Source of the DNA: Ruegeria sp. YS9
Lineage (GTDB): Bacteria > Pseudomonadota > Alphaproteobacteria > Rhodobacterales > Rhodobacteraceae
Direction of reading: 5' to 3'
DNA: 64,000 bases
Assembly (NCBI RefSeq): GCF_024628725.1
Contig: NZ_CP102409.1
Location: 253,501-317,500 of the forward strand
The position numbers were made by a program, and so were the translations under genes. Shown here in pieces: positions 23,296 to 64,000 of the stretch; within the stretch, counting starts at the first letter, position 1; every line of letters starts with the position of its first letter. Below the pieces are notes generated by a model that was not told the DNA's origin, ran no database searches, and saw nothing but the letters and a program-made list of their open reading frames with translations.

Positions 23296-23769
23296 ATGAA
23301 ACTGAACGAATTGCGCGACAATCCCGGCGCCAGCCCGAAACGCACCCGCGTTGGCCGTGGTCCGGGTTCCGGCAAAGGTAAAATGGGTGGCCGTGGTATC
23401 AAAGGCCAGAAATCCCGTTCGGGTGTGGCCATCAATGGCTATGAAGGCGGTCAGATGCCATTGTACCAGCGTCTTCCCAAGCGTGGCTTCAACAAGCCGA
23501 ACCGCAAGGAATTCGCCGTTGTCAACCTGGGTCTGATCCAGAAATTCGTCGAAGCGGGCAAGCTGGACGCTTCGGCTGCGATCACCGAAGACGCTCTGGT
23601 TGCGTCCGGTCTGGTTCGCCGCAAGCTGGACGGTATCCGCGTTCTGGCCAAAGGCGAAATCAGCGCCAAGGTGAACCTGGAAGTGACCGGTGCTTCGAAA
23701 TCTGCCGTCGAGGCAGTCGAGAAAGCGGGCGGTTCACTGAAGGTCACAAAAGCTGCTGCGGCAGAGTAA
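23296..23769 (+). CDS. rplO: 50S ribosomal protein L15
   Basis: A 157-residue L15. The N-terminus [20 protein letters not shown] and the Gly-rich segment [20 protein letters not shown] are diagnostic. Late assembly protein of the 50S subunit. The start at 23296 has TAGGAGAAG upstream. It is the first gene of a plus-strand block rplO-secY-adk-rpsM-rpsK-rpoA-rplQ; the genes that normally precede it (rplE to rpmD) are 38 kb away on the other strand. Confidence 0.98.
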
Positions 23770-23778
23770 TCGCTTGTG

Positions 23779-23796
23779 AGCGGGCAAAGACCCGCT
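23779..23796 (+). terminator. Weak hairpin between rplO and secY
   Basis: AGCGGG / CCCGCT arms with a six-base loop and no T-run. It could be a partial attenuator or a processing site within the operon; evidence is limited to the inverted repeat. Confidence 0.3.
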
Positions 23797-23878
23797 TACA
23801 TAGACCTCAGAGTTTTCCAAGACGCCGTCCGAGCCGGAAAACGGTTCCGGGCGGCGTTTGCATAAGAGAGACCGATTT

Positions 23879-25243
23879 ATGGTATCAGCAGCAGAACAAA
23901 TGGCAGCCAACACAAGCTGGGCTGCTCTGGGCAAGGCCACCGATCTGCGCAACCGCATCCTGTTCACGCTGGGTTTGCTGATCGTCTATCGTCTGGGCAC
24001 ATTCATTCCGGTGCCGGGGATCGACGGGGCAGCTTTGCGCGAATTCATGGAGCAGGCGGGGCAGGGCATCGGCGGCATGATTTCGATGTTCACCGGCGGG
24101 GCGCTGGGGCGGATGGGTATCTTTGCCCTCGGCATCATGCCCTACATCTCGGCCTCGATCATCGTTCAGCTGCTGACATCGATGGTTCCCGCGCTCGAGC
24201 AACTCAAGAAAGAGGGCGAGCAAGGGCGCAAGAAGATCAACCAGTACACCCGGTTCGGCACCGTGGCTCTGGCCACCGTTCAGGCTTATGGCCTGGCCGT
24301 TTCGCTGGAATCGGGCGATCTGGCGACTGATCCGGGTCTCTATTTCCGGATGTCGACCATGATAACGCTGGTTGGCGGCACCATGTTCCTGATGTGGCTG
24401 GGTGAGCAAATCACCGCGCGCGGTATCGGCAACGGCATCTCTCTGATCATCTTTGTCGGCATCATTGCCGAGGTTCCGGCTGCTCTGGCGCAGTTCTTTG
24501 CAAGCGGCCGCAGCGGTGCAATCAGCCCTGCCGTCATCGTTGGCGTGATCGTCATGGTGATCGCGGTCATCACTTTCGTGGTGTTCATGGAACGTGCATT
24601 GCGCAAGATCCACATTCAGTATCCGCGCCGCCAGGCCGGTATGAAAATCTACGAAGGCGGCTCAAGCCACCTGCCGGTCAAGGTCAACCCCGCAGGTGTC
24701 ATTCCGGCGATCTTCGCCAGCTCGCTGCTGCTGTTGCCGGTCACGATCTCGACCTTCTCGTCAGGTGCCGCGAACGGGCCCGTCATGTCTTGGCTGCTGG
24801 CCAATTTCGGCCCCGGACAGCCGCTTTACCTGCTGTTCTTTGCCTCGATGATCGTGTTCTTTGCCTATTTCTATACGTTCAACGTGTCGTTCAAACCGGA
24901 CGATGTGGCGGACAACCTGAAAAAGCAGAACGGTTTCGTGCCCGGCATCCGCCCCGGCAAGAAAACCGCTGAATATCTGGAATACGTGGTCAACCGCGTG
25001 CTGGTGCTGGGTTCGGGCTATCTGGCGGCGGTCTGCCTGCTGCCCGAAATCCTGCGGGGCCAGTTTGCCATTCCGTTCTATTTCGGCGGCACCTCGGTTC
25101 TGATTATCGTCTCTGTGACCATGGACACGATCCAGCAGGTTCAGAGCCATCTGCTGGCGCATCAATATGAAGGGCTGATCGAAAAGTCCCAACTGCGTGG
25201 CAAAGGCAAGAAACGCGGCAGAAAGGGAGCTGCTCGTCGATGA
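23879..25243 (+). CDS. secY: Protein translocase subunit SecY
   Basis: A 454-residue SecY with ten membrane segments, forming the channel of the Sec translocon. Signature stretches are [15 protein letters not shown] (plug/TM1 region) and [20 protein letters not shown], and [24 protein letters not shown] residues appear as [19 protein letters not shown]. The start at 23879 ([14 protein letters not shown]) has AAGAGAG upstream; MAANTSW is an alternative start. It overlaps adk by four bases. Confidence 0.98.
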
Positions 25244-25884
25244 ACATCATTCTTCTGGGCCCCCCGGGGGCAGGCAAGGGAACGCAGGCGCGTCACCTGG
25301 TTGAAACCCGCGGTATGATCCAGCTGAGCACGGGTGACATGCTGCGCGAGGCGCGGACCAGCGGCACAGAGATGGGCAAGAAGGTTGCAGCGATCATGGA
25401 CGCGGGCAAGCTTGTCACCGATGAGATCGTGATCGGCCTTATCGAAGAGAAACTGACCACCGAAAAGGGCGCCGGTTTCATCTTTGACGGCTTCCCCCGC
25501 ACGCTGGCACAGGCCGACGCGCTGTCGGCTCTGCTGACCAAGCTGGGTCAGTCTCTGCACACCGTGATCGAGATGCGTGTGGATGATGATGCGCTGGTGG
25601 AACGGATTACCGCGCGGTCAACCTGCGGCGGATGTGGTGAGGTCTACAACGACAAGACCAAGCCGATCCCGGCTGATGGAAAGTGCACCAATTGCGGCAA
25701 GAAAAACGACTTCGTGCGTCGCGCTGACGACAACGAGGAAAGCCTTCGCACGCGTCTGATGGAATACTACAAGAAGACGTCGCCGCTGATTGGCTATTAC
25801 TACGCCAAGGGTGATCTGCGCCCGGTGAACGGGCTGGCGGACATCAAGGAAGTCACGGCGTCGATCGAAGCCATTCTCGGCTGA
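25240..25884 (+). CDS. adk: Adenylate kinase
   Basis: A 214-residue long-type adenylate kinase (AMP + ATP to 2 ADP). P-loop [11 protein letters not shown] at residues 7-17, and the LID region contains CGGCGEVYN and CTNCGKKND, a four-cysteine set that probably binds zinc, so the LID is of the zinc type. Its ATG overlaps the secY stop (ATGA), the usual secY-adk coupling. An imperfect hairpin (ATGGGCTT / AAAAGCCCAT) follows the stop. Confidence 0.98.
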
Positions 25885-26042
25885 GTTCAATATGGGCTTG
25901 ACGGCACCGCCAAAAGCCCATATCGACCCCCATCCCTAAAGGGAATCAAGATCGCGTGAGGGATTCGTCGCTTGCGCCCCGACCACCTCGAATAATACTG
26001 GACCCTCTGGCGTCACTGCCACGGTCAGGTGTTGTGAAAAAA

Positions 26043-26062
26043 GGTTCCGGAGTTACGGAACC
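26043..26062 (+). promoter_or_regulatory. Stem-loop directly upstream of rpsM
   Basis: GGTTCCG (26043-26049) and CGGAACC (26056-26062) are perfect inverted arms with a six-base loop, 22 bases before the GTG start of rpsM. In E. coli the corresponding leader of the alpha operon is the S4 target. Here rpsD is not in the operon, so any such role is inferred. A TAATAC box lies at about 25992-25997 and may be part of a promoter. Confidence 0.4.
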
Positions 26063-26084
26063 GCAACAAAAAGGAAAGTGACAC

Positions 26085-26453
26085 GTGGCACGTATTGCCG
26101 GCGTAAACATCCCGACTGCAAAGCGGGTACCTATCGCCCTCACATATATCACCGGTATCGGAAACACTTCGGCCAACGCAATTTGCGAAGCCGTAGGCAT
26201 CGACGCATCGCGTCGTGTCAACGAACTGTCCGACGCCGAAGTTCTGGCCATCCGCGAGCACATCGACGCAAACTTTACCGTCGAAGGTGACCTGCGTCGT
26301 GAAGTTCAGATGAACGTCAAGCGCCTGATGGACCTGGGCTGCTATCGCGGTCTGCGCCATCGCCGCAACCTGCCGGTTCGCGGTCAGCGTACCCACACCA
26401 ATGCTCGTACCCGCAAAGGCCCCGCAAAGGCCATCGCTGGTAAGAAGAAATAA
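26085..26453 (+). CDS. rpsM: 30S ribosomal protein S13
   Basis: A 122-residue S13, with N-terminus [20 protein letters not shown] and C-terminus [15 protein letters not shown]. It contacts tRNA in the P site and bridges to the 50S subunit. The start is GTG at 26085, with AAGGAAAG upstream; no ATG fits the family N-terminus. It leads the alpha-operon part of the block. Confidence 0.98.
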
Positions 26454-26468
26454 GGGAGGGTCTGACCG

Positions 26469-26858
26469 ATGGCACGTGACAAGACTCGCGTTAAGCGCAA
26501 AGAGCGCAAGAACATCGCATCGGGCGTTGCCCATGTGAATTCGACCTTCAACAACACCAAGATCCTGATTTCGGACGTGCAGGGCAACGCCATTGCATGG
26601 TCCTCTGCCGGGACCATGGGTTTCAAAGGGTCGCGTAAATCGACACCCTACGCCGCTCAGATGGCTGCCGAAGACGCAGGCAAGAAGGCGCAGGAACATG
26701 GCGTCAAGACGCTGGAAGTCGAAGTTCAGGGCCCCGGTTCGGGCCGTGAATCGGCACTGCGCGCGCTGGCTGCCGTGGGCTTCAACATCACGTCTATCCG
26801 CGACGTGACGCCGATTGCTCACAACGGCTGCCGACCGCCGAAGCGTCGTCGCGTCTAA
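26469..26858 (+). CDS. rpsK: 30S ribosomal protein S11
   Basis: A 129-residue S11 of usual length. The stretches [18 protein letters not shown] and the C-terminus [18 protein letters not shown] are typical. It forms part of the platform near the mRNA exit. It lies 15 bases after rpsM, with GGGAGGGT upstream of its start. Confidence 0.98.
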
Positions 26859-26972
26859 GCGATTTTGAATTGAGCTGGGGCTGTGTTTCTGCACGGCCCC
26901 AGCACGTCATTTTGAACCTCGGGCGTCTGCACCTTGTTGGTCATGGGGCGCGGACAGGAATGGAGGGATTAC

Positions 26973-27989
26973 ATGATCCACAAGAATTGGGCCGAATTGA
27001 TCAAGCCGACCCAGCTGGAAGCCAAGCCGGGCAATGATCCTGCACGTCAGGCCACCCTGGTTGCCGAACCGCTGGAGCGTGGCTTTGGTCTGACCCTGGG
27101 CAACGCCCTGCGCCGCGTTCTGATGAGCTCGCTGCAAGGCGCGGCCATCACCAGCGTCCAGATCGACAACGTCCTGCACGAGTTCAGCTCGGTCGCCGGC
27201 GTTCGTGAAGACGTCACCGACATCATCCTGAACCTCAAGCAGGTTGCCCTGCGCATGGAGGTCGAAGGCCCCAAGCGCCTGTCGATCAATGCCAAAGGCC
27301 CCGCAGTCGTCACCGCTGGCGACATCAGCGAAAGCGCCGGTATCGAGGTTCTGAACCGTGATCACGTCATCTGCCACCTGGACGATGGCGCAGACCTGTT
27401 CATGGAACTGACCGTCAACACTGGCAAGGGCTATGTCTCGGCCGAGAAGAACAAGCCCGAAGACGCACCCATCGGCCTGATCCCGATCGACGCGATCTAT
27501 TCGCCGGTCAAAAAGGTCGCCTATGACGTTCAGCCGACCCGTGAAGGTCAGGTTCTGGACTATGACAAACTGACCCTGAAGATCGAAACTGACGGTTCGA
27601 TCACGCCGGAAGACGCGCTGGCCTTTGCCGCTCGTATCCTTCAGGATCAGTTGTCGATCTTCGTCAATTTCGACGAGCCGGAATCGGCAAGCCGTCAGGA
27701 CGAGGACGATGGTCTGGAGTTCAACCCGCTGCTGCTGAAGAAGGTGGACGAGCTGGAACTGTCGGTCCGTTCGGCAAACTGCCTGAAGAACGACAACATC
27801 GTTTACATCGGCGACCTGATCCAGAAGACCGAAGCCGAGATGCTGCGCACCCCGAACTTCGGCCGCAAGTCGCTGAACGAGATCAAGGAAGTGCTGTCCG
27901 GCATGGGTCTGCACCTGGGCATGGATGTCGAGGACTGGCCGCCGGACAACATCGAAGATCTGGCGAAGAAATTCGAAGACGCGTTCTAA
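26973..27989 (+). CDS. rpoA: DNA-directed RNA polymerase subunit alpha
   Basis: A 338-residue alpha subunit. The N-terminal dimerisation domain includes [20 protein letters not shown] near residue 38. The C-terminal DNA- and activator-binding domain includes [19 protein letters not shown] and [13 protein letters not shown]. The start [16 protein letters not shown] at 26973 has GGAGGGATT just upstream, so the longer in-frame start at 26934 is rejected. Confidence 0.99.
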
Positions 27990-28107
27990 GCGCGTCTTCC
28001 CCAATGCCCGGGCTGCCGGGGACAAAATGGGCATATCCGCCCCAAGGAGAGCCGGTGACACGCATCGCCGGCCAGACAAAGCAAAACGCGAAAGAAGGAA
28101 CTAGAAA

Positions 28108-28530
28108 ATGCGTCACGCACGTGGTTACCGCCGCCTGAACCGTACTCATGAGCACCGCAAGGCGCTGTTTGCGAACATGGCCGGCTCGCTCATTGAACAT
28201 GAGCAGATCAAAACAACTCTGCCCAAGGCAAAAGAACTGCGCCCGATCGTTGAAAAACTGATCACTCTGGGCAAGCGCGGCGATCTGCACGCCCGCCGTC
28301 AGGCCGCATCGCAGCTGAAAGAAGACAAGGACGTCGCCAAGCTGTTCGAAGTTCTGGGCCCCCGCTACGCCGAGCGTCAGGGCGGTTACGTCCGCATCCT
28401 GAAAGCTGGCTTCCGCTATGGCGACATGGCTCCGATGGCGATCATCGAATTCGTTGACCGCGATCTGGACGCCAAAGGCGCGGCCGACAAAGCCCGCGTC
28501 GCCGCCGAAGAGGCAGCAGACGAAGAGTAA
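28108..28530 (+). CDS. rplQ: 50S ribosomal protein L17
   Basis: A 140-residue L17. [20 protein letters not shown] is the usual N-terminus. An acidic Ala/Glu tail follows the conserved core, as in other alphaproteobacteria. It is the last ribosomal gene of this block and is followed by a strong terminator. Confidence 0.98.
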
Positions 28531-28554
28531 GACCTGACCCAAGGTCACGATAGA

Positions 28555-28590
28555 ACCTCCGTTCGGGAAACCGGACGGAGGTTTTTTCGT
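28555..28590 (+). terminator. Rho-independent terminator after rplQ
   Basis: AACCTCCGT and ACGGAGGTT arms with further pairing (TCGG / CCGG) in the loop region and a following run of T residues. It closes the rplO-rplQ transcription unit. Confidence 0.9.
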
Positions 28591-28689
28591 TATGGCATGC
28601 CGGGCATGTTGCGGGGCATACCCGACCGCTGACTTGCAATTCAGATTTTGTGTCAGCATATCTGGGCCAATCACAAAAACGGAGCCACC

Positions 28690-30075: not shown

Positions 30076-30078
30076 CCT

Positions 30079-53933: not shown

Positions 53934-53997
53934 TTTTTTTTTGAAGAATCGGCTTGCACGTCTCGGGCGGCAGGTCTAAACAGCGCCTCACCAACGC

Positions 53998-54074: not shown

Positions 54075-54541
54075 CTGGTTTCCTGTTGAACGTCACACGA
54101 ACCTGACCCAACCGTCACAGTTGGACCAGAAATGCAGTGAACGTTCGACATCAGAAGGCGCCCCCAACGTTGGACATCAGTTGAATTTGACCTTTGCGTC
54201 ATCAACTAACACGCCGCCCCCATTTCATACTCCCGCAGACAGTTTGGTTTGATCTGACTTCCCTTTCGGAAAATCAGAGCTGATTTGTAGGTCAGACAGC
54301 GAAGCTGCCTGTTCCTGCTAATCTGCCACGTGGCGAACGCGGGAGGGGGCGAGGCAATGCTATTCGACAGAGGTGGTGCGGCCCGCAGGCACAGCCGAGG
54401 ACACGGCCCTGTCTAATAGGGTTGCCCGAGGGGGAGGGCCGCGCCCTCACCCTGACGGCCAGGGGCGTTTGGCCTGTCCAAATCCCGCTGACCCACGAAA
54501 GGAGTGCGGCGTGAAGGATGATAGCCACCATTGACGATCAT
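54075..54541. other. Intergenic stretch between tRNA-Arg and the insertion sequence
   Basis: I find no convincing gene here. Two near-copies of ACGTTSGACATCAG occur at about 54142-54155 and 54166-54179. A plus-strand frame open from 54322 to 54531 (53 codons from the first GTG) encodes a Gly/Arg/Pro-rich sequence ending KECGVKDDSHH, but it lacks an ATG and clear translation signals. The segment may be leftover mobile DNA, interrupted by the IS at 54542. Confidence 0.4.
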
Positions 54542-54543
54542 TA

Positions 54544-55375
54544 GGGTCAGGACGCATTGATTTCCCGCGCATGACGTGATTCACGGCCCCAAAAACGGAG
54601 CGGTGATATGAGCGACCTTTACTGGCTGAGCGATGAGCAGATGGCCAAGCTTACCCCTTTTTTCCCGAAGTCGCACGGCAAGCCACGTGTCGATGACAAG
54701 CGCGTCCTGAGTGGGATTATCTTCATCAATCGCAATGGTTTGCGCTGGCGTGACGCTCCTGCCGCCTATGGTCCGCACAAGACGCTCTACAGCCGCTGGA
54801 AGCGCTGGAGCGAGAAAGGCATCTTTGCGCGGATGATGGCGGGTCTGGCCGCCGAACACGGCGAACAGAAGACCGTGATGATCGACGCGACCTACCTCAA
54901 GGCCCATCGAACAGCGACCAGTCTGGCCGCGAAAAAGGGGGGCGTGGGCGCCTGATCGGTCGAACCAAAGGCGGCATGAACACCAAACTGCACGCCATCT
55001 GCGATAGCCAAGGCCGCCCACTCAACCTGTTCGTCACCGCCGGTCAGGTCAGCGACTACATCGGTGCGCGGGCGTTGCTCAGCAGCCTGCCAAAGGTCGA
55101 CTGGCTGCTCGGGGATCGCGGTTACGATGCCGATTGGTTCCGGGAAGCGTTGCAAGACAAAGGGATACGCGCCTGCATCCCTGGACGAAAGCAGCGCAAG
55201 AAAGCCGTCAGATACGATAAGCGTCGATACAAACGCCGAAACCGGATCGAGATCATGTTCGGCAGGCTGAAGGATTGGCGGCGCGTGGCAACCCGCTACG
55301 ACCGTTGCCCAAAGGTCTTCCTCTCTGCCATCGCTCTGGCCGCGCTCGTCATCTACTGGTTATGAATCCTGACCC
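54544..55375 (+). mobile_element. IS5-family (IS427-type) insertion sequence, apparently complete
   Basis: An 832-bp element. The ends GGGTCAGGA (54544-54552) and TCCTGACCC (55367-55375) are perfect inverted repeats, extended imperfectly inward. Each end is flanked by TA (54542-54543, 55376-55377), a plausible target duplication. Inside is a transposase in two overlapping frames, as in IS427-group elements of this length. No other IS copy in the window is complete. Confidence 0.85.
54608..55365 (+). CDS. IS5-family transposase in two frames (probable programmed frameshift)
   Basis: Frame A, 54608-54955 (115 aa), starts MSDLYWLSDEQMAKLTPFFP and holds the DDE segment VMIDATYLKAHRTATSL. Frame B, 54976-55365 (129 aa), starts MNTKLHAICDSQGRPLNL and holds DRGYDADWFRE and the terminal RNRIEIMFGRLKDWRRVA. 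The slippery run GCGAAAAAGGGGGG near 54929-54942 sits before the frame A stop, and frame B is open upstream of its Met. A -1 shift would fuse them, the known mode of this IS group, so it is probably functional rather than broken. Confidence 0.85.
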
Positions 55376-55382
55376 TAGGACG

Positions 55383-56171
55383 TTAGCTGCGAAGAATTAC
55401 AGCTCCCATTCTGAATAGGGTTCGCAGCTCGAATTTCTCTGATGCGAGTTGGTCGAAGCGAAATACCAGCCCGTCCATTGTGTAACTAGCTCGCCTTAGC
55501 CAAGTGTCGGTTATCTGAATTCTGCTGGTTTCAGAAACGTTTAGAGGAAGCTCAATTTCTTTAGTTCTGGCAAGGAATAGATCGTTTACCACACAATCGT
55601 TGTGAGCAATCAAATTCCGCACTTCGGATGCTACGACTACTGTTTCAAAGGCCTCTTCGCTCGGAAATATATCGATGCCGGTTCGAGTTTTTATGAACTT
55701 TCTTAGCTCGCGGAGTGATTTGTAGGAGAGTTCGTGAACTTTCCGCTCTACAATCTGCCAGATGACATCTTCGTAGCTCCCAGATTCGATGATTGCGGCG
55801 ATATCAATTGTTCCCTCTGATTTCAGCATTTCTGGGCGTGACAAGAATATGTCACGAAGAACTGTTGTAAGATACAGGTCAAAGGACTCGGTTGCTCTAG
55901 AGAGCATGATTTGGTTCACCAACTGGCGATGCTTGGAATAGTTGTATTCGAAGAGCTTTAGCTCCTCCGTACCAGCTCGTTCCCTGACCGAAACCGGCAT
56001 TGCTTCGCCAATCTTGTGTGAAGTTTTTACGAAACTAAAGTAAAAAGAGACAAATTCTCGCAGCTCCATAATTCGAGCCATGTACGTCAAGCACGGTTCC
56101 GTTACATAGTCTGGTGGTTCCCCAAAGCCTTCAGCGATCGGGTCAACTTCATCAGGTGTTTCGTCATTCAT
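55383..56171 (-). CDS. Hypothetical protein with HEPN-like RxxxxH motif
   Basis: A 262-residue soluble protein rich in Glu, Leu and Ile. Near residue 187 it carries ASEVRNLIAHNDCVVND, matching the R-x4-H active site of HEPN RNases and its typical following residues. The gene is distinctly AT-richer than its neighbours, with AT-rich codons, indicating transfer. It ends six bases from the IS end. No antitoxin is adjacent, so a toxin or abortive-infection role is only a guess. ATG 56171 is chosen over an in-frame TTG at 56186. Confidence 0.7.
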   Translation of the reverse strand: MNDETPDEVDPIAEGFGEPPDYVTEPCLTYMARIMELREFVSFYFSFVKTSHKIGEAMPVSVRERAGTEELKLFEYNYSKHRQLVNQIMLSRATESFDLYLTTVLRDIFLSRPEMLKSEGTIDIAAIIESGSYEDVIWQIVERKVHELSYKSLRELRKFIKTRTGIDIFPSEEAFETVVVASEVRNLIAHNDCVVNDLFLARTKEIELPLNVSETSRIQITDTWLRRASYTMDGLVFRFDQLASEKFELRTLFRMGAVILRS

Positions 56172-56325
56172 AAAAGAAGTTCTCAAACTCTGGCTTAAAC
56201 TCGAAGTGTCAATCAGCTTCTCGTCGCAATACTCGCCTTTGTCGCCGTCAGTATCAAATCCATTTACCCCTTGCCAAACCCCCTCAACCCCACTACTACG
56301 CGCGAGTTCTCCATAAGAACATCAA

Positions 56326-56347: not shown

Positions 56348-56419
56348 GGGTTCGATGAGGGTTGGCGATGCGCGTCTGTCCTCCTCTCAACTCCAACGCC
56401 TGAATAAAAGGCTGTTAAT

Positions 56420-56734
56420 ATGCAAAGCCAAAACATCCGTATTCGGCTGAAGGCATTTGACTATCGCGTTCTGGATGCCAGCACGCAAGAGATCGTCAAC
56501 ACTGCCAAGCGGACCGGCGCGAACGTGCGCGGCCCGATCCCGCTGCCGAACAAGATTGAGAAGTTCACGGTTCTCCGTGGCCCTCACGTTGACAAGAAAT
56601 CCCGCGACCAGTTCGAGATCCGCACGCACAAGCGTCTGCTCGACATCGTTGATCCGACCCCCCAGACCGTTGACGCGCTGATGAAGCTCGACCTCGCTGC
56701 TGGTGTGGACGTCGAGATCAAGTTGCAGTCGTAA
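56420..56734 (+). CDS. rpsJ: 30S ribosomal protein S10
   Basis: A 104-residue S10, starting [40 protein letters not shown] is the conserved loop. It belongs to the 30S head and to the Nus antitermination complex. It leads the S10 operon; the usual upstream tuf/fusA is replaced by the HEPN gene and IS. Confidence 0.98.
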
Positions 56735-56749
56735 TCGGAGGGTATGAGA

Positions 56750-57475
56750 ATGCGCTCTGGTATTATCGCAAAAAAAGTTGGCATGACCCGCCTGTTCATG
56801 GAAGACGGCAAGCAGATCCCTGTGACCGTTCTTCACTTGGACAACCTGCAGGTCGTTGCACAGCGCACCGCTGACAAAGACGGCTACACCGCCGTTCAGC
56901 TGGGTGCCGGTGCCGCCAAGGCAAAACGCACCTCGAAGGCCATGCGCGGCCACTATGCCGCTGCCAAGGTCGAGCCCAAGCGCAAGCTGGCCGAGTTCCG
57001 CGTCTCCGAAGATGGCCTGATCGAAGTGGGTGCCGAGATTTCGGCAGAACACTTCCTGGAAGGTCAGAAGGTTGACGTATCGGGCACATCGATCGGTAAA
57101 GGCTTTGCCGGTGCGATGAAGCGCCACAACTTCGGTGGCCTGCGCGCCTCGCACGGTGTCTCGATCTCGCACCGTTCGCACGGTTCGACCGGTCAGTGTC
57201 AGGACCCGGGCAAGGTTTTCAAAGGCAAGAAGATGGCCGGTCACATGGGTGCTGCCCGTGTCACCACCCAGAACCTGGAAGTCGTCAAAACCGACGCCGA
57301 GCGTGGTCTGGTCTTCATCAAAGGCGCCGTTCCCGGACCAAAATCGGGCTGGGTCACCGTCAAGGACGCCGTGAAGAAGAAAGCACCGGAAGGCCTGCCT
57401 TTCCCGGCTGCTGTGAAATCGGCTGCATCTGATGCACCTGCGGAAGAAGCTCCCGCGGAAGGTGGTGAAGCATGA
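56750..57475 (+). CDS. rplC: 50S ribosomal protein L3
   Basis: A 241-residue L3. [20 protein letters not shown] at the start and [20 protein letters not shown] in the middle are typical. It nucleates 50S assembly. I chose ATG 56750 because GGAGG is at the right distance; the ATG at 56744 would be one base from it. The C-terminal Ala/Glu extension is common in this group. It overlaps rplD (ATGA). Confidence 0.98.
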
Positions 57476-58089
57476 AACTTGATGTAATCAAACTGGACGG
57501 CGGCAAAGCCGGCGACATCGAGCTGAACGCCGATCTGTTCGGTCTCGAGCCTCGTGCGGACATCCTGCACCGTGTGGTCCGTTGGCAGCGCAACAACGCG
57601 CAGGCCGGCACCCACAAGGTCAAGACCCGCTCGGAAACCAGCTACTCGACCAAGAAGATCTATCGCCAGAAGGGCACCGGTGGCGCACGCCATGGTGACC
57701 GCAACGCGCCGATCTTCCGCAAGGGTGGTATCTACAAGGGCCCGACCCCTCGTTCGCACGGCCACGACCTGCCGAAAAAGTTCCGCAAGCTTGGCCTGCG
57801 CCACGCTCTGTCGGCCAAAGCCAAGGCAGGTGAACTGGTCGTGATCGAGAACGCCGAAGCCGAAGGCAAGACCGCCGCTCTGGCCAAACAGGTTGCAAAC
57901 CTGGGCTGGAAACGTGCTCTGGTCATCGACGGCGCGACCGTGAACGAAGGTTTCCTGAAGGCGTCGCGCAACATCGAAGGTCTGGATATCCTGCCGTCGA
58001 TGGGTGCAAACGTTTATGACATCCTCAAGCGTGACACTCTGGTGCTCACCAAAGCGGCTGTCGAAGCACTGGAGGCTCGACTGAAATGA
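57472..58089 (+). CDS. rplD: 50S ribosomal protein L4
   Basis: A 205-residue L4. [20 protein letters not shown] and [20 protein letters not shown] are conserved. It lines the exit tunnel and in some bacteria represses the S10 operon. It overlaps rplC and rplW by four bases each. Confidence 0.98.
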
Positions 58090-58382
58090 GCGCGAAGGCA
58101 GAACACTACGACGTGATCCGCAAGCCGATCATCACCGAAAAGTCGACCATGGCGTCCGAAAACGGCGCGGTTGTCTTCGAAGTGGCGATCGACAGCAACA
58201 AGCCACAGATCAAAGAGGCCGTTGAGGCACTGTTTGGTGTGAAGGTCAAAGCGGTGAACACCACCGTGACCAAAGGCAAGGTCAAGCGGTTCCGCGGCCA
58301 GTTGGGCAAGCGGAAAGACGTCAAGAAGGCCTATGTGACCCTGGAAGAGGGTAACACCATCGACGTGTCCACCGGTCTCTGA
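58086..58382 (+). CDS. rplW: 50S ribosomal protein L23
   Basis: A 98-residue L23. [20 protein letters not shown] and [20 protein letters not shown] are diagnostic. It sits at the exit tunnel and is the docking site for trigger factor and SRP. It is the last intact ribosomal gene of this piece; rplB, normally next, is only a fragment. Confidence 0.98.
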
Positions 58383-58411
58383 TCGGAACGGTCTTTGGAG
58401 AGAGATAAAGG

Positions 58412-58435
58412 CCCCCGCGAAAGCGGGGGTTTTTT
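58412..58435 (+). terminator. Rho-independent terminator after rplW
   Basis: CCCCCGC (58412-58418), GAAA loop, GCGGGGG (58423-58429) and six T residues. It ends the rpsJ-rplW transcript before the rplB fragment. Confidence 0.92.
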
Positions 58436-58854
58436 GTTGTGACGCTCGAATCTAGGAGCGGTGTTCTTTCCGTTCTGTGTTTTCAAAGGCTCGCCATAGC
58501 ATCGGGTGTATTGTCACTTTCACCTAGCAATACGGTCTTTGCCGTGTTGCAATGGAAGCATTCCACCCCGAGCAGAAAAGGGCAAGCAAGGTTAGCGCTT
58601 TAGTATAGTCAAAAATGATGTTAAAAAGATGTACTTCTGGGGTATGTTTTTCGAGCTGCACCTAACGCCAAAAATATCTATAGACACCCACCCCCAACCC
58701 TGTTTCACGCACCCAGTCTTACGGCCTCGGATTCGTTCCGGGGCCTTAGATATTTTGAACCGGGGACCTTCGGGGCCCTATACCCTTGGCACCTACGGGG
58801 GCCTCACACATAGCGGGGAAACTCCCTGCACTTGCTAAACGGAAGACAGAAAGC
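58436..58854 (+). other. Leader-like sequence before the rplB fragment
   Basis: No gene here. The first half is AT-rich (AGTATAGTCAAAAATGATG near 58602) and could hold a promoter; the second half, about 58738-58805, contains four similar GC-rich blocks of the form CGGGGNCCT. It ends with GGAAGACAGAAAGC directly before an ATG. This looks like the 5' leader that would precede an independently transcribed rplB. Confidence 0.45.
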
Positions 58855-58875
58855 ATGGCACTCAAGTCGTATAAG
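58855..58875 (+). pseudogene. rplB: 5' fragment of rplB (first seven codons)
   Basis: The start reads MALKSYK, identical to the N-terminus of ribosomal protein L2 in this group, and it sits exactly where rplB should follow rplW. From codon 8 the reading becomes RDFFDRRKDGW, unlike L2 (expected Pro-Thr-Thr/Ser-Pro-Gly-Gln), and no L2 domain follows. The fragment is short, so chance cannot be excluded by itself; position and the leader make it convincing. Confidence 0.72.
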
Positions 58876-59167
58876 CGCGATTTTTTTGATCGCCGCAAAG
58901 ACGGCTGGACGTCAGGTGCAGTTCTGGAAAAGAGCAATGAAATCGATTTGAGCACCGGTTTTTGACCCAACATGAGCGGCTGATCACGGCCCGGCGGTTT
59001 ACCATGTACGGTCGTGTCACGAGCTTTGAGATGGCGCCATAGGTCCCCCTTGACATCCAGCAGGGGGCATAGGCCCGATATTAGCGTCATACAGTAGGGG
59101 TTACGCTCTTCTGCAGCGAGGGGCGCTCTGGCGATCTATGGGCGTTCTGCGGGCTTCTCTCGGAAAC
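58876..59167. other. Unassigned sequence beyond the rplB break
   Basis: Between the rplB fragment and the DUF1127 gene's terminator I see no credible gene. Both strands contain frames of up to about 110 codons but no recognisable domain or start. Composition is near average. It may be mobile-element debris brought in at the break; I could not identify it. Confidence 0.4.
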
Positions 59168-59172
59168 AGAAA

Positions 59173-59190
59173 AGGCGCCGTTTGGCGCCT
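59173..59190 (-). terminator. Terminator of the DUF1127 gene
   Basis: AGGCGCC / GGCGCCT arms with a four-base loop, followed on the minus strand by TTTTCTG. It lies 28 bases after the DUF1127 stop. Confidence 0.8.
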
Positions 59191-59217
59191 TTGTATCTTG
59201 CTGCGGATCGTCCGCGA

Positions 59218-59430
59218 TTATGAGCAGTAAACGTGCTTATGCGCGATATCTGCGATGTCGCAGCGGCGGATGCCGATATCGTCCAACTCACGGTTGCTCA
59301 GGCGCTGCAACTCGGAATAGGTGCGCTGATACTCAGCGGCACGGGCGCGCGCCGTTTTGATCCGTTCGATCATGTCCTTGATCCGGGGGCCGAAGTTGAA
59401 GCCGGTATGTGTCAGTGTAGCGGTTGTCAT
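59218..59430 (-). CDS. DUF1127 domain small protein (YjiS-like)
   Basis: A 70-residue basic protein. The C-terminal core ELQRLSNRELDDIGIRRCDI is the DUF1127 signature. Such proteins are linked to small-RNA turnover and stress or phosphate responses in alphaproteobacteria. A clear ribosome binding site (GGAACACAG) and terminator support expression. The stretch 59431-59609 shows no gene. Confidence 0.88.
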   Translation of the reverse strand: MTTATLTHTGFNFGPRIKDMIERIKTARARAAEYQRTYSELQRLSNRELDDIGIRRCDIADIAHKHVYCS

Positions 59431-59609
59431 TTCTGTGTTCCTTTCTCAAATCAGGGCGAATTCCCTGACGTTTCCTTGTGTGTTCCTTGTTTGGACAAGG
59501 CTGAGATAGGTGTGTTTGGTACCGCTAACAACGGAACTTTTGGTCTAGCCGATATGCATCTATTGAATGGCTGTACATTTCGCTGACCCATTGCAGTCAA
59601 ATGCTGCTT

Positions 59610-60059
59610 TCACGTCTTGCGCGCATTTCTTTTGCGTGCCGTCATTGCCCGGCCGTCACGAATGCTCAGCCCCATCAGTATCAGATTGGTTGCGCCTGCA
59701 ATCAGTTCGATGACCTGCACAGCATAGAAACTGGCGTCAAAGGATCCCGCGTTTGCTTTTACGCTGAGGTAGATGGCGGCGGGAACGAGGATAAGAAGCC
59801 CGTTCATCGCTATGATTGGCATCCGCTTCTTCTTTGCAAGCGCCGGGGCATCTTTGCGGCGACGTCCAAGAGACATGCCGGACGCGCCGACAATCACCAT
59901 CGCCGGCACCAGAACAAAGAGACCACTGACGATCATGGATTTTACTGCGGTGACGGTCGCATGGGTCGCAAACAACTCGCTGTACAAGGTGGATGTCCAG
60001 AACACGAGGATTGTAAGAAATCCGATGAGTCCGGCGATGGGGTGTATGGCTCTTACCAT
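59610..60059 (-). CDS. Four-helix integral membrane protein of unknown function
   Basis: A 149-residue protein with four hydrophobic segments (about 5-23, 42-62, 82-102, 115-134). The His in AIHPIAGLIG and Thr/Glu near the second helix suggest a conserved family, but I cannot name it. It lies 21 bases downstream of the ABM-domain gene in the same direction and may be cotranscribed with it. Confidence 0.65.
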   Translation of the reverse strand: MVRAIHPIAGLIGFLTILVFWTSTLYSELFATHATVTAVKSMIVSGLFVLVPAMVIVGASGMSLGRRRKDAPALAKKKRMPIIAMNGLLILVPAAIYLSVKANAGSFDASFYAVQVIELIAGATNLILMGLSIRDGRAMTARKRNARKT

Positions 60060-60080
60060 GGGGCTGCTCCGGTTTTAGTT

Positions 60081-60449
60081 TCAGGCGACGCAGTGGTTTT
60101 CGACTGCGAGTTTTCTAAGAAGATGTGGCCGGGCCACTGCGCTTTCCGGGTAGTCGGCAATCCGACGTTGGAACTCAGGATGGGTGAACGCGTCGCGAAA
60201 GCTTTTGACGTCCTGCCAGATCGCGTAGTTCACAAAGGTTGAACTGCCCGCGATGCCCTGATGGAGCTGGGTGGAGATGTATCCTGGCTGGGCTTTCATG
60301 AAATCTGCATCATGTGACCATGCCTCAAGCAGTGCTTTTTCGTCTTCCGCGTCCACCGTGAACAGGTTGATCAGAACCACCGGCCCTTCTTCGTTCTGCA
60401 TTTGGTCCGCCAGTGAGACGGTCTTGTCCAACTCTTCGATACGAGCCAT
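60081..60449 (-). CDS. Antibiotic biosynthesis monooxygenase (ABM) domain protein
   Basis: A 122-residue dimeric alpha+beta barrel type protein. The stretch PVVLINLFTVDAEDEKALLE and the later GYISTQLHQGI with FVNYAIWQD match the ABM fold, which handles quinone or polyketide oxidation. Start 60449 has AGGGAAG upstream; the in-frame upstream start would overlap the operator. It is divergent from marR, with two palindromes between, so it is the likely target of that regulator. Confidence 0.84.
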   Translation of the reverse strand: MARIEELDKTVSLADQMQNEEGPVVLINLFTVDAEDEKALLEAWSHDADFMKAQPGYISTQLHQGIAGSSTFVNYAIWQDVKSFRDAFTHPEFQRRIADYPESAVARPHLLRKLAVENHCVA

Positions 60450-60473
60450 TTCGCTTCCCTTTGATTCTATAAC

Positions 60474-60507
60474 ATAGCAAGCTATATAAAATTGCATAGC
60501 GTGCTAT
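60474..60507. promoter_or_regulatory. Two MarR-type operators in the divergent promoter
   Basis: ATAGCAAGCTAT (60474-60485) and ATAGCGTGCTAT (60496-60507) are two perfect palindromes with the same half-site (ATAGC), centred 22 bases apart, about two helical turns. They lie between the ABM gene and the MarR gene. Confidence 0.7.
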
Positions 60508-60526
60508 TCAAGTGTAAATCTGAGAC

Positions 60527-60958
60527 ATGGACTTTGAAAAAGAGAACTCGGCCGGATACCTGGTCAATCACATGGCGCGATTGTTTGCGAAAAAATTGCA
60601 GCAGCGCATTGCGCCGTTAGGTATCGTTGTCGGGCAATTCCCGATCTTGCTGGAGCTTTGGGTCAAAGACGGAGTGACGCAAAAAGATCTTCTTGGAAAA
60701 ATCGATGTCGAACAGGCGACCCTAGCCAACACGCTCAATCGTATGGAGCGCGACGGATTGATCAAAAGAACAAAGAATCCCTCTGATGCCAGAGCTCAAT
60801 TGATCTGGCTGACCCGGAAGGCAGCCGCGCTTCGTGACAGCGCCTACGAGGCCGCTATGAGCGTGAATGCTGATGCCCTACAGGTTTTGAACGAAGCTGA
60901 GCGCGCGCAATTCATGAATGCCATGAGATTGATAATCAAAAACATGCGTTCGGTTTGA
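60527..60958 (+). CDS. MarR family transcriptional regulator
   Basis: A 143-residue winged-helix regulator. The recognition region KDLLGKIDVEQATLANTLNR and the wing RDGLIKRTKNPSDARAQLIW (truncated here) are typical. It probably represses the divergent ABM gene and itself until a phenolic or quinone ligand binds. The start ATG at 60527 lies 20 bases from the second operator. It is convergent with the rpmD block. Confidence 0.9.
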   Translation: MDFEKENSAGYLVNHMARLFAKKLQQRIAPLGIVVGQFPILLELWVKDGVTQKDLLGKIDVEQATLANTLNRMERDGLIKRTKNPSDARAQLIWLTRKAAALRDSAYEAAMSVNADALQVLNEAERAQFMNAMRLIIKNMRSV

Positions 60959-61024
60959 GTGAACCCAAAGCAGCCTGACCCTGATCAAAACGATAGGTCA
61001 GATGCAGTTAACCACAAGAAAAAA

Positions 61025-61049
61025 CGCCCCCGCATTGATCGGAGGCGTT
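61025..61049 (-). terminator. Rho-independent terminator after rpmD
   Basis: On the minus strand ACGCCTCC, a loop and GGGGGCGT (one G-U pair) are followed by a T-run. It means that rpmD ends a transcript here, instead of leading into rplO. Confidence 0.85.
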
Positions 61050-61073
61050 TCATGTTCTTCGAAGGTATTGCGC

Positions 61074-61262
61074 TTAGCCGCGCTCTTCGACGATCTCTAC
61101 CAGATGCGGGATCTTGTTGATCATACCGCGGACCGAAGGGGTATCTTCCAGTTCGCGGGTTTTGTGCATCTTGTTCAGGCCCAGGCCGATCAGGGTTGCG
61201 CGCTGTTCGGCGGGGCGGCGGATCGGGGAACCGATCTGCTTGACGACGATGGTTTTTGCCAT
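61074..61262 (-). CDS. rpmD: 50S ribosomal protein L30
   Basis: A 62-residue L30. [20 protein letters not shown] and [20 protein letters not shown] are typical. It is the last gene of the inverted block. In the usual order it precedes rplO, which here is 38 kb away on the other strand. Confidence 0.97.
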
Positions 61263-61274
61263 GGGTCGCTCTCC

Positions 61275-61841
61275 TTACGCTTCGGCTTCAGCAGCCGGTG
61301 CTTCGTCCCGCTTGGGCAGGATGTCGGCAACTTTTTTACCACGACGTGCGGCAACCGAACGCGGGCTCTGCTCTTTTTGCAGGCCGTTGATGGTGGCGCG
61401 GATCATGTTGTACGGGTTCTGCGAGCCCAGCGACTTGGATACCACGTCCTTGACGCCCAGCATTTCGAACACGGCACGCATCGGACCACCGGCGATGATA
61501 CCGGTACCTTCAGGTGCGGTGCGCATAACCACTTTACCGGCGCCGTGACGGCCTTCGATATCGTGGTGCAGGGTCCGACCTTCGCGCAGTTGCACGCGGA
61601 TCATCTGACGCTTGGCTTGTTCGGTCGCCTTGCGGATGGCTTCAGGTACTTCTTTCGCTTTACCCTTGCCAAAGCCCACGCGGCCTTTCTGATCGCCGAC
61701 AACCACCAGAGCGGCGAAGCCAAAGCGCTTACCACCTTTTACGGTTTTCGACACACGGTTGATCGCAACCAGGCGATCTGCGAATTCCGGAGTTTCGTCG
61801 CGGTCACGACCACGGCCCCGGCGGTTATCACGTTCTGCCAT
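61275..61841 (-). CDS. rpsE: 30S ribosomal protein S5
   Basis: A 188-residue S5. Core [20 protein letters not shown] and the loop [20 protein letters not shown] are conserved. It contributes to decoding accuracy. A 173-base gap with a palindromic repeat separates it from rplR, unusual within this operon. Confidence 0.98.
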
Positions 61842-61964
61842 TTGGCATCCCTTTTCTCATATGGCGCTCTCGGCACCGTTTCTTCAATCCAAGTGAGCCC
61901 CGACTGTTGCCGAGGCCCCCGGATCATCGGGGCGGATCGAAACCCGCCCGCAATCTTTGGCATT

Positions 61965-62008
61965 GCGCATCTTGACCCGAAAACCGGTTCCCACTTTTCG
62001 GGATGCGC
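61965..62008. repeat. Palindromic repeat in the rplR-rpsE gap
   Basis: Outer arms GCGCAT (61965-61970) and ATGCGC (62003-62008) and inner arms CCCGAAAA and TTTTCGGG enclose CCGGTTCCCAC. The core (AAAACCGGTTCCCACTTTTC) resembles a dispersed intergenic palindrome that I recall from many alphaproteobacteria. It lies directly after the rplR stop (62015). Confidence 0.7.
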
Positions 62009-62014
62009 TTGGTC

Positions 62015-62374
62015 TTAGATCTTCAGACCACCTTCACGCGCAGCGTCGGCCAGTGCCTTCACCTTGCCGTGGAACAGGAAGCCACCACGATCGAAATAGG
62101 CCTCTTCGACGCCTGCCTTCTTGGCACGCTCTGCGATGGCCGCGCCGACTTTGGTCGCCGCATCGATGTTGTTTTTGCCAACAACGCCCAGATCCTTTTC
62201 CAGGGTCGAGGCCGAGGCCAGGGTCACGCCACGCACGTCGTCGATCAGCTGAACAGAAATGTTCTTGTTCGACCGGTGCACGGACAGACGCGGACGACCC
62301 GCGTTGACCTTGCGAAGTTTGTTCCGAACGCGCAGGCGGCGCTTCAGAAACAGGGTTCTTTTGCTGTTTGCCAT
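62015..62374 (-). CDS. rplR: 50S ribosomal protein L18
   Basis: A 119-residue L18. Start [40 protein letters not shown] and the C-terminus [20 protein letters not shown] are diagnostic. It binds 5S rRNA. The start at 62374 was chosen over an in-frame start lying inside rplF. Confidence 0.98.
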
Positions 62375-62385
62375 TGTGTTCGTCC

Positions 62386-62919
62386 TTACTTCTTCTTGCC
62401 TTCCTTGCGGAAGATGAACTCGCCCTTGTAGCGGATGCCTTTGCCTTTGTAAGGCTCGGGGCGGCGCCACTCGCGGATTTTGGCCGCGGTTTCGCCCACC
62501 AGCTGCTGGTCGATACCTTCCACAACGATCTCGGTCTGCTTCGGCGCGGTGATGGTGACACCTTCCGGAGCAGTGAAATCAACATCGTGGCTGTAGCCCA
62601 GGTTCAGCTTCAGGGTGTTGCCCTGCATCTGAGCCCGGTAACCAACACCCTGGATCTCCAGCTCTTTTTTGAAGCCGGTCGTCACACCGGTTACCAGGTT
62701 GGCAACCATGGTGCGGCTCATGCCCCACTGCTGGCGAGCACGTTTGGACATGCCGCGGGGGTCGATCTTAACCACGTTGTCTTCAACCGACAGCGTTACG
62801 TCGTCGGTGGCGGTAAAGCTGCGGGTGCCTTTCGGACCTTTCACTTCGATGGTCTGACCCGACACAGTGGCGGAAACGCCGCTGGGCAGCTCGACCGGCT
62901 TTTTACCAATACGAGACAT
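62386..62919 (-). CDS. rplF: 50S ribosomal protein L6
   Basis: A 177-residue L6. [20 protein letters not shown] and the C-terminus [20 protein letters not shown] are typical. It binds near the sarcin-ricin loop. It lies 11 bases before rplR. The longer in-frame start overlaps rpsH and is rejected. Confidence 0.98.
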
Positions 62920-62932
62920 TGCAGACCTCCCT

Positions 62933-63325
62933 CTAGAAGACGGTGCAGAGCACTTCGCCGCCAACATTGTTGGAGCGAGCGTTTGCGTCCGACATCACAC
63001 CTTTCGGAGTGCTGACAATCGACACACCCAGACCCTGACGGACCTGTGGGATGTCATTGACGCCCATGTATACGCGACGGCCGGGCTTCGAGACCCGCTT
63101 CAGTTCACGAATAACAGGGGTGCCTTCGTAGTATTTCAGGCTGATTTCGATGGCCGGATGACCGTTTTCACCGGTCGTCTTTTCATAGCCACGGATGTAG
63201 CCTTCGTCCGCCAGCACGTCCAGAACCCAGCCGCGCAGCTTGGAAGCCGGGGTGGAAACGGTGGACTTGCCGCGCATTTGCGCGTTGCGGATACGGGTGA
63301 GCATATCGCCGATAGGATCATTCAT
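62933..63325 (-). CDS. rpsH: 30S ribosomal protein S8
   Basis: A 130-residue S8. [20 protein letters not shown] and the C-terminus [20 protein letters not shown] are typical. It binds the central domain of 16S rRNA and in E. coli represses the spc operon at the rplE site. Spacing to neighbours is 13 bases on each side. Confidence 0.98.
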
Positions 63326-63338
63326 ATCTATGTCTCCC

Positions 63339-63644
63339 TTACCAGCTCGATTTCACCATGCCGGGGATCTGACCAGCAGAACCCAGCTCGCGCAGCGCGA
63401 TACGGCTGACCTTCAGCTTACGGTAGTAAGCGTGGGGACGACCGGTCAGCTGACAACGGTTGTGCAGACGGGTAGCCGAGCTGTTGCGCGGCAGTTTCGC
63501 CAGTTTCAGACGCGCCTTGAAGCGCTCTTCCATCGGCTTGCTCTCGTCATTCGCGATTTCTTTCAGCTCGGCACGCTTCGCGGCATATTTGGCCACCAGG
63601 CGTTCGCGCTTCTTTTCGCGTTCGATCATTGCTTTTTTAGCCAT
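63339..63644 (-). CDS. rpsN: 30S ribosomal protein S14 (zinc-free, long form)
   Basis: A 101-residue S14 without the CxxC zinc motif, so the long zinc-independent form. [20 protein letters not shown] and IPGMVKSSW at the end are diagnostic. It lies between rplE and rpsH as in other proteobacteria. Confidence 0.97.
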
Positions 63645-63663
63645 GTCTCAATCCTCCCGGCGC

Positions 63664-64000
63664 TTATGCGTTGAACGGCATGTTGAAAGCTTTCAACAGT
63701 GCCTTTGCTTCAGCGTCGGTTTTCGCTGTGGTGGCAATTACGATATCCATGCCCCAGACTTCGTCGACCTTGTCGAAATCGATTTCCGGGAACACGATGT
63801 GCTCTTTCATGCCCATGGCAAAGTTGCCCTGACCATCGAAAGCAGGCTTTACACCGCGGAAGTCACGAACGCGCGGCAGCGCGATGGTGATCAGACGATC
63901 CAGGAATTCGTACATCCGGTCACCGCGCAGGGTCACTTTCGCGCCCAGCGGCATGTCTTCACGGACGCGGAAGCCCGCGATCGACTTCTTCGCCTTGGTT
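63664..64000 (-). CDS. rplE: 50S ribosomal protein L5 (partial, 5' end outside window)
   Basis: About the last 112 residues of L5 (normally about 187). [16 protein letters not shown], then [15 protein letters not shown], then FGMKEH-type text as [15 protein letters not shown]. It contacts 5S rRNA and P-site tRNA. The internal Met at 63954 is not the start; the frame is open to the window edge. rplX and the upstream genes should lie beyond 64000. Confidence 0.97.

What the first reader, a model, noticed from the sequence alone, without database searches (positions are those of the whole stretch)
23296..64000. S10-spc-alpha ribosomal superoperon present in three dispersed pieces, one inverted
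rpsJ-rplC-rplD-rplW (56.4-58.4 kb, plus), rplE to rpmD (64.0-61.1 kb, minus) and rplO-secY-adk-rpsM-rpsK-rpoA-rplQ (23.3-28.5 kb, plus) form one conserved run in nearly all bacteria. Here they lie as separate blocks, the middle one inverted, and each has its own punctuation: a terminator after rplW, a terminator after rpmD, a promoter before rplO. At least two rearrangements are needed to explain it. This affects stoichiometric control of translation genes and would be a strong clade marker.
Basis: partly seen in the sequence, partly recalled or inferred. Interest (0 to 1): 0.8.

Follow-up and report, generated by a model that had tools for sequence, protein, structure and literature searches.

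The report
Ribosomal superoperon split, flipped and cassette-loaded
In this Ruegeria bacterium the normally unbroken run of ribosomal-protein genes lies in three separate pieces with its 16-gene middle part flipped against the direction of DNA copying, and related species suggest why: accessory genes collect at fixed joints of the run, several of them followed directly by a duplicated tail end of the ribosomal gene rplW.

Summary
A (rpsJ-rplW) and C (rplO-rplQ) lie on +, B (rplB-rpmD, 16 genes, running past the window) on -. A general misassembly is excluded: the A|inverted-B and desaturase|rplO arrangements recur in four other Ruegeria genomes; junctions private to this genome are untested by reads. 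In the genus the superoperon is cut at fixed joints between units with conserved leaders; joints hold variable genes; at least 10 of 41 genomes are rearranged further. GC skew puts B head-on to replication in all five inverted genomes. The inverted state is scattered on three gene trees (one clade not rejected), so it is a poor clade marker. This genome then moved the region across the origin and swapped C with A-B at a tRNA-Arg end, where an IS5-like element lies. Unexpected: 26 of 40 genomes carry, at the rplW|rplB joint or its displaced remains, extra copies of the rplW 3' end; in collinear joints 27 of 34 copies lie within 17 nt of the stop of an open frame (1.7 expected). Copies decay as non-coding DNA; 16 of 41 keep a terminator-like hairpin. 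Of 27 cluster genes, only rplW (27 of 110 loci) shows this repeatedly, rplP once. How cassettes form is unknown.

The parts
23173..23201 (+). putative rplO promoter TTGTCA-N17-TATACG
   Evidence: core conserved in an alignment of 5 inverted and 4 collinear genomes; position counted by hand from that sequence
23296..28530 (+). block C: rplO, secY, adk, rpsM, rpsK, rpoA, rplQ
   Evidence: ORFs; tblastn map
21952..23031 (-). fatty acid desaturase gene, in many relatives a cassette between rplW and rplB; here reversed next to rplO as in the four other inverted genomes
   Evidence: ORF; placement; Pfam PF00487 on the homologue L129
53998..54074 (+). tRNA-Arg(ACG); synteny of C plus downstream genes with G029 and G001 ends at its 3' end
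54542..55378 (+). IS5-like element in the gap between the C region and block A; identical copies elsewhere in the chromosome
   Evidence: Pfam; copies in L265 and L288; plasmid homologues annotated IS5 family
56420..58382 (+). block A: rpsJ, rplC, rplD, rplW
   Evidence: ORFs; tblastn
58412..58435 (+). rplW terminator hairpin and T-run
   Evidence: sequence; consensus in genus
58787..58852 (+). orphan L2 ribosomal leader RNA (RF03142), second copy of the rplB leader
   Evidence: 63.5 bits, gathering 37.8; 200-bp inverted repeat, 91%, with the native copy; two copies in the genome apart from a 27-bp match on C2
58855..58875 (+). first seven codons of rplB, truncated
   Evidence: sequence; repeat ends at 58876
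58924..58999 (+). weak relic of the rplW 3' end downstream of the truncated rplB
   Evidence: 76% over 80 columns to rplW 3' ends of L204 and L130; nhmmer 22 bits, E 9e-5
59218..59430 (-). DUF1127 gene, part of the rpmD|rplO joint in collinear relatives; the inverted segment ends just past it
   Evidence: Pfam; placement
60081..60958 (.). ABM monooxygenase (-) and MarR regulator (+), cargo of the rpmD|rplO joint
   Evidence: Pfam; same pair at this joint in several relatives
61021..61051 (-). terminator-like hairpin after rpmD
61074..64000 (-). window part of block B: rpmD, rpsE, rplR, rplF, rpsH, rpsN, rplE (continues to rplB at window-frame 70192)

Best explanation
In Ruegeria the S10-spc-alpha superoperon is no longer one run but a chain of units: A (rpsJ-rplW), B1 (rplB-rplP), B2 (rpmC-rpmD) and C (rplO onward), with a conserved leader in front of each and conserved hairpin-like ends behind rplW, rplP and rpmD. 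Shown: unrelated genes collect at the joints. Inferred: because breaking a joint then costs little, inversions and moves of whole units survive. Here an inversion arrangement shared with four other genomes turned desaturase+B+DUF1127 round, so that B is transcribed head-on to replication; later events private to this genome moved the region across the origin and exchanged the order of C and A-B, breaking at a tRNA-Arg end, upstream of the rpsJ leader and upstream of the L2 leader. At the rplW|rplB joint several cargo genes come as cassettes [gene + copy of the rplW 3' end and the DNA behind it]. Inferred: founding insertions duplicated the rplW end, some cargo keeps the copied terminator, and the short direct repeats help cassettes to be exchanged, added and lost by recombination. 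The molecular step that forms a cassette is not known.
For: Same arrangement in G001, G026, G027, G029. Leaders and gene ends conserved while the sequence between varies; RF03142 at rplB and an L2 r-leader in print for rplB, rpsS, rplV, rpsC of Alphaproteobacteria (PMC7247131, Table 1 passage). RT-PCR in R. pomeroyi gave no product between the rpmD|rplO insert and either rpmD or rplO, with a terminator predicted after rpmD (PMC3305630 passages). Head-on: local GC-skew sign in all five inverted genomes (one 20-kb stretch each for G026 and G027), dnaA at C1:361. Cross-origin move: rpoB at 2.58 Mb and EF-G-type genes at 2.567 and 2.602 Mb here, but rpoB 18 kb from rplW in G001. Extra rplW ends in 26 of 40 genomes; 27 of 34 copies in collinear joints within -3 to 17 nt of the stop of a same-strand open frame of at least 70 codons, 1.73 expected, 0 of 2000 simulations; codon-position signal lost (.215/.170/.205 against .027/.020/.103); of 27 cluster genes only rplW (27 of 110 loci) shows copies repeatedly, rplP in 1 of 117.
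Against: The copied terminator decays too: compared with real rplW genes that have their own terminator, copies fall from .877 to .791 in the 3' part and from .951 to .808 in the coding part; a terminator-like hairpin with T-run is found in 16 of 41 copies, 34 of 40 real rplW ends and 230 of 1880 random windows. Genomes without detectable copies also carry cargo at this joint (for example G012), and cargo at rpmD|rplO comes without such copies (no same-strand downstream copy in 89 loci), so duplication is not needed for insertion. Copies of one cargo type are not independent, so overstates the evidence; six cargo types in the genus and one or two outside carry the pattern. Not all joint cargo is on the operon strand: 65 of 106 cluster representatives are, 41 are not. 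BLAST and HMM differ by up to about 30 nt in where a copy starts. No fitness data support 'breaks cost little'. Fourfold-site skew in B does not differ between inverted and other genomes.
Confidence: 0.65

Rival explanations
1. Assembly artefact: repeats (IS copies, tuf) led to wrong joins.
For: An IS5-like element with identical copies elsewhere lies in the private gap 54076-56264.
Against: A|inverted-B and desaturase|rplO arrangements recur in four other genomes; the chromosome is a single 3.24-Mb contig with a broadly coherent GC-skew pattern in 26 sampled stretches.
Confidence: 0.05
2. SNAP model: a segment carrying the ribosomal genes was duplicated under selection, then copies were lost unevenly; the orphan L2 leader with seven rplB codons is a remnant of a lost rplB copy.
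For: Orphan L2 leaders downstream of rplW in G000 and G025 and a partial extra one in L170; the model was proposed for this operon cluster (PMC8046335 section 19).
Against: Self-comparison of the collinear genus joints shows only rplW-end direct repeats and two short inverted ones, no longer duplicated stretch. The G000 orphan is slightly closer to other species (94.4%) than to its own native leader (92.4%), which fits import as well.
Confidence: 0.2
3. A site-specific recombinase acting in trans, or a lost element, targets the rplW 3' end, as some mobile elements target 3' ends of ribosomal-protein genes (recalled).
For: Specific to rplW among the 27 genes tested (rpsM, rpsK, rpoA and rplQ were testable in 2-6 loci only); the four commonest rplW|rplB cargo types are all on the operon strand (20/20, 13/13, 6/6, 5/5 loci, including species present twice); fusion points lie in a narrow stretch of rplW.
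Against: No tyrosine recombinase among the 25 Pfam families shown of 58 matched by 84 of 106 joint-protein representatives (the other 33 families were not shown; one IS1595 transposase was); fusion points differ by cargo type, whereas a recombinase would cut at one place.
Confidence: 0.2
4. Independent inversions at the same joints in up to three lineages rather than one inversion that spread or was partly reversed.
For: Scattered on three trees; A-side sequence differs between G000 and the other four; BLAST of the short link between desaturase and rplO leader finds it in G026 and G029 but not in G001 or G027.
Against: In all four relatives one alignment runs through the desaturase-rplO junction and by eye the spacer upstream of the rplO promoter is alignable in all five (weakest in G027) but not in four collinear genomes; the other end lies just past the DUF1127 unit in all five; one clade is not rejected.
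Confidence: 0.3

Closest known systems
[quoted passage not shown]
   Same: genes first invade, then units separate; 77 of 115 events there trace to insertions (section 19)
   Different: the title names Gammaproteobacteria and Bacilli, its first group is 115 Proteobacteria and Acidobacteria, the word Alphaproteobacteria has 0 hits (passages and one section read); here breaks lie inside the S10 and spc runs at fixed joints, a 16-gene block is inverted, and some insertions carry duplicated rplW ends
Variable genes inserted in conserved Roseobacter operons (Christie-Oleza 2012, PMC3305630)
   Same: the rpmD|rplO insert in R. pomeroyi and its variability among roseobacters are in print, with RT-PCR; inserts in suc and sdh operons too (passages)
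   Different: the passages seen do not mention inversion, dispersal or rplW-end copies
L2-Alphaproteobacteria ribosomal leader, RF03142 (PMC7247131)
   Same: both G000 copies pass the gathering score
   Different: one copy is an orphan downstream of rplW with a truncated rplB
Integron gene cassettes (recalled)
   Same: one gene plus a repeated element right behind its stop codon, shuffled order
   Different: the repeat is the tail of a ribosomal gene; no integrase or attC was found, nor searched for exhaustively

Membership tests
S10-spc-alpha superoperon | gene content rpsJ to rplQ | tested here: met
   27 cluster genes read from G000; rpsD and rpmJ not looked for
S10-spc-alpha superoperon | one collinear run | tested here: not met
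   C at 23-28.5 kb, A at 56-58 kb, B inverted from 61 kb
L2-Alphaproteobacteria leader RF03142 | score over gathering threshold | tested here: met
   63.5 and 60.8 bits against 37.8
SNAP-type rearrangement | remnants of a segmental duplication | tested here: inconclusive
   only short duplicated ends: rplW end, L2 leader, rplP end
integron | integrase gene and attC sites | tested here: inconclusive
   none among the 25 of 58 Pfam families shown for 84 joint proteins; genome-wide search and attC search not done
reversible (phase-variable) inversion | flanking inverted repeats used within a strain | not testable with these tools
   a 200-bp inverted repeat exists in G000 but no reads or strain series were available

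The most novel reading that the evidence does not exclude
The 3' end of rplW is the seed of a cassette array: a dedicated or strongly biased process loads single genes between rplW and rplB, each time leaving a copy of the rplW tail and terminator behind the new gene, so that a core ribosomal operon serves as a cargo dock that also picks up phage-defence genes, and this loading is what dismantled the superoperon and allowed its middle to be flipped head-on.
Probability: 0.3. Interest if true: 0.8.

Novelty: new variant of a known kind. Interest (0 to 1): 0.6.

Why it matters
The order of this gene run is among the most conserved in bacteria, and how it gets broken is open: the authors of the closest study write that the precise mechanisms cannot be determined (PMC8046335 section 19). 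Ruegeria offers many breaks with scars at their edges (duplicated rplW ends, orphan L2 leaders), and natural genomes with a 16-gene ribosomal block head-on to replication, which could be used to measure the cost of such collisions and of splitting the run.

Tried and rejected
Misassembly as a general explanation: rejected by the arrangements shared with four genomes. rplB interrupted after rplW: rejected, the intact gene is outside the window and the fragment is a leader copy. Clade marker: not supported by three trees. Compositional age of the inversion from fourfold sites: no difference. Tandem duplication of the whole rplW-rplB joint: self-comparisons of collinear joints show no direct repeat beyond the rplW end, so not favoured, though the truncated rplB near a rplW-end relic in G000 would fit it. 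Repeat-driven origin of the inversion: the native/orphan L2 leader pair was found in G000 alone among the inverted genomes, so it did not cause the shared inversion. My first reading that the copied terminators are conserved as well as the real ones was wrong: real rplW genes without their own terminator had diluted the comparison. Rearrangement counts leave out G014, G028 and G034 for want of contig, and the B|C joint of G061-G064, whose stretches did not reach rplO. Papers: searches listed nothing recognisable on rplW-end cassettes or an inverted ribosomal block in Ruegeria; they cover the held open-access library only, and apart from PMC8046335, PMC7247131 and PMC3305630 I saw listings alone.
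Full report
1. What is there. The three blocks are as described. Block B continues past the window to an intact rplB, so it has 16 ribosomal genes. The window lies at C1:253501-317500 of a 4.30-Mb genome in 6 contigs.

2. The genus pattern. Four domain searches over 61 genomes (37 of the genus including G000, 24 of other families of the class) and tblastn maps of the fetched loci show blocks A | B1 | B2 | C. Where rplW and rplB are collinear on one contig in the genus they lie about 1.1-6.2 kb apart; outside the genus they are adjacent in 21 of 21 class genomes with both. Inserts are also common at rplP|rpmC and rpmD|rplO. Compact clusters exist in the family (for example L165, L175). Beyond inserts: G000, G001, G026, G027, G029 have B inverted against A; in G025 rplB and rpsJ are divergent and B2-C lie on another contig; in G036 A and C are 4 kb apart and B is 147 kb away; in G031 A lies on C4 with more than 200 kb of contig behind rplW while B lies near the end of C2; in G002 and G005 rplO lies mid-contig on another contig than rpmD. 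That is at least 10 of 41 genus genomes examined (37 plus G061-G064); G014, G028 and G034 could not be judged for want of contig, and the B|C joint of G061-G064 was not fetched. Among the 80 named loci, L126 (same species as G026) is inverted and in L200 block B2 is inverted.

3. The shared inversion. In the five inverted genomes a desaturase gene that elsewhere sits between rplW and rplB lies reversed beside rplO, and a DUF1127 gene from the rpmD|rplO joint lies on the rplW side. One alignment of about 1.35 kb runs through the desaturase-rplO junction in each of the four relatives; by eye the spacer upstream of the rplO promoter is alignable in all five, weakest in G027, and not in four collinear genomes; BLAST of the short link alone finds it in G026 and G029 only. 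On trees of A+C genes, B genes and rpoB the state needs 3, 2 and 3 changes; one clade is not rejected (AU p 0.257, 0.055, 0.116). One origin with spread by recombination, or one gain with reversals, fits best; independent hits at the same joints are not excluded. GC skew around the locus has, in each of the five, the sign that puts A and C on the leading strand and B head-on. Fourfold-site skew in B does not differ.

4. The private events. G029 1-14127 matches window 56357-70362 (A and inverted B) and G029 16094-50043 matches window 21952-54076 (desaturase, C and downstream genes): the order is exchanged. Synteny ends at the 3' end of tRNA-Arg; the gap before rpsJ holds an IS5-like element and an ORF without Pfam match. 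In G001 rpoB is 18 kb from rplW; in G000 rpoB is at 2.58 Mb and EF-G-type genes at 2.567 and 2.602 Mb, so the region crossed the origin; the two places are roughly symmetric about the skew switch near 3.0 Mb (arithmetic mine).

5. The orphan leader. RF03142 hits rplB's leader and a second place after rplW, followed by seven rplB codons and a weak rplW-end relic. Apart from a 27-bp match on C2 there are two copies in the genome. G025 has a decayed orphan after its rplW, followed by sequence that I read as the end of tuf in reverse (the tuf reading is mine).

6. The rplW-end cassettes. A profile of the last 120 nt of rplW plus 58 nt found 41 extra copies in 26 of 40 genus genomes with rplW (five of the weakest score 22-29 bits) and, outside the genus, copies in L149, L163 and L196. 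BLAST over 41 whole genomes found them only at this joint or its displaced remains, apart from one 31-bp match on another contig of G028. In collinear joints 27 of 34 copies start -3 to 17 nt from the stop of a same-strand open frame of at least 70 codons; 1.73 expected, 0 of 2000 simulations (copies of one cargo type are not independent, and a few of these frames may not be genes). Cargo types: aldose epimerase, fatty acid desaturase, YceI, sulfatase, an 86-aa and a 210-aa ORF without Pfam match, and outside the genus a lipid A acyltransferase. By BLAST the fusion point in rplW (297 nt) is nt 193-194 in 3 of 4 epimerase copies (204 in the other), 200-208 in 5 of 10 desaturase copies (221-246 in the rest), 208 in the ten copies behind the 86-aa ORF, 215-218 in 3 YceI copies (229 in one, not measurable in one), 210 for the sulfatase and 223 in the best preserved copy behind the 210-aa ORF (233-256 in four others). 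On a tree of 84 ends, labels (real rplW and cargo types) are clustered overall (23 changes, shuffled mean 39.9, as low in 0 of 200), clearly for epimerase, 86-aa, 210-aa and desaturase, not for YceI (5 changes for 5 rows); few branches are well supported. Mismatches by codon position are .215/.170/.205 in copies and .027/.020/.103 in real rplW. Against the 32 real rplW genes that keep their own terminator, copies fall from .951 to .808 in the coding part and from .877 to .791 in the 3' part; a hairpin with T-run is seen in 16 of 41 copies, 34 of 40 real ends and 230 of 1880 random windows. So the copies are relics; some keep a terminator. The self-search with 27 genes found rplW in 27 of 110 loci (23 same-strand downstream), rplP in 1 of 117 (G020, right after a cargo stop), short 44-56-nt matches at rplR in 2 of 93 and rpmD in 1 of 89, and nothing for the other 23; genes of block C were testable in few loci (61 down to 2).

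7. How it works. Shown: separate conserved leaders and ends, and for rpmD|rplO in R. pomeroyi no RT-PCR product across the joint (PMC3305630, passages). Inferred: once units are self-contained, cargo can settle between them and whole units can be inverted or moved; duplicated rplW ends may give cargo a terminator and give recombination a foothold. The founding step of a cassette is unknown; site-specific insertion, template switching back into rplW, and capture by homologous recombination all fit parts of the data.

8. What is known. Gene invasion followed by separation of operon pairs is described (PMC8046335, passages and section 19); variable inserts in roseobacter operons including rpmD|rplO are in print (PMC3305630); the L2 leader is in print (PMC7247131, Table 1 passage). 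I found no account of the rplW-end copies or of the inverted block in searches.

Noticed in passing
rplW|rplB joint of L130 (8147-9832), L200 (8253-9809), L205 (12412-13461): The joint also carries single phage-defence-like genes: AbiU, an AbiP2-type reverse transcriptase and TIR-TM; among 84 joint proteins PADLOC also lists SoFic, capP and mad3 matches (25 of 61 families shown) and Pfam lists AIPR in two (members not identified).
   Followed up: partly
rplP|rpmC joint; L003 2792-3412 (-) in this genome: A 2OG-Fe(II) oxygenase gene (PF13759 in G000) has relatives at this joint in 73 fetched loci, 58 in the operon's orientation and 15 opposite, in several with a cold-shock gene.
   Followed up: partly
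window 21295-21531 (-) and L003 2329-2535 (-): Two cold-shock genes, 81% alike over 298 bp, one beside the displaced desaturase and one in the rplP|rpmC joint.
   Followed up: no
window 54542-55378: The IS5-like element reads as two frames (DUF4096 and DDE parts), perhaps by frameshift; identical copies lie within C1:357401-377400 and 2900001-2920000.
   Followed up: partly
L230 (G025) 10436-11755: rplW is followed by an orphan L2 leader and then what reads as the reversed end of tuf, as if block A had been inverted in place between tuf and rplB.
   Followed up: partly
window 55383-56186 (-): A 267-aa ORF without Pfam match between the IS element and rpsJ; the listed BLAST rows showed no similar DNA in relatives' loci (22 of 59 rows shown).
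   Followed up: partly
L124 3248-3880 and relatives: In several genomes a 210-aa ORF of unknown family starts at the rplW stop codon with no terminator between, so it is probably co-transcribed with rplW.
   Followed up: partly
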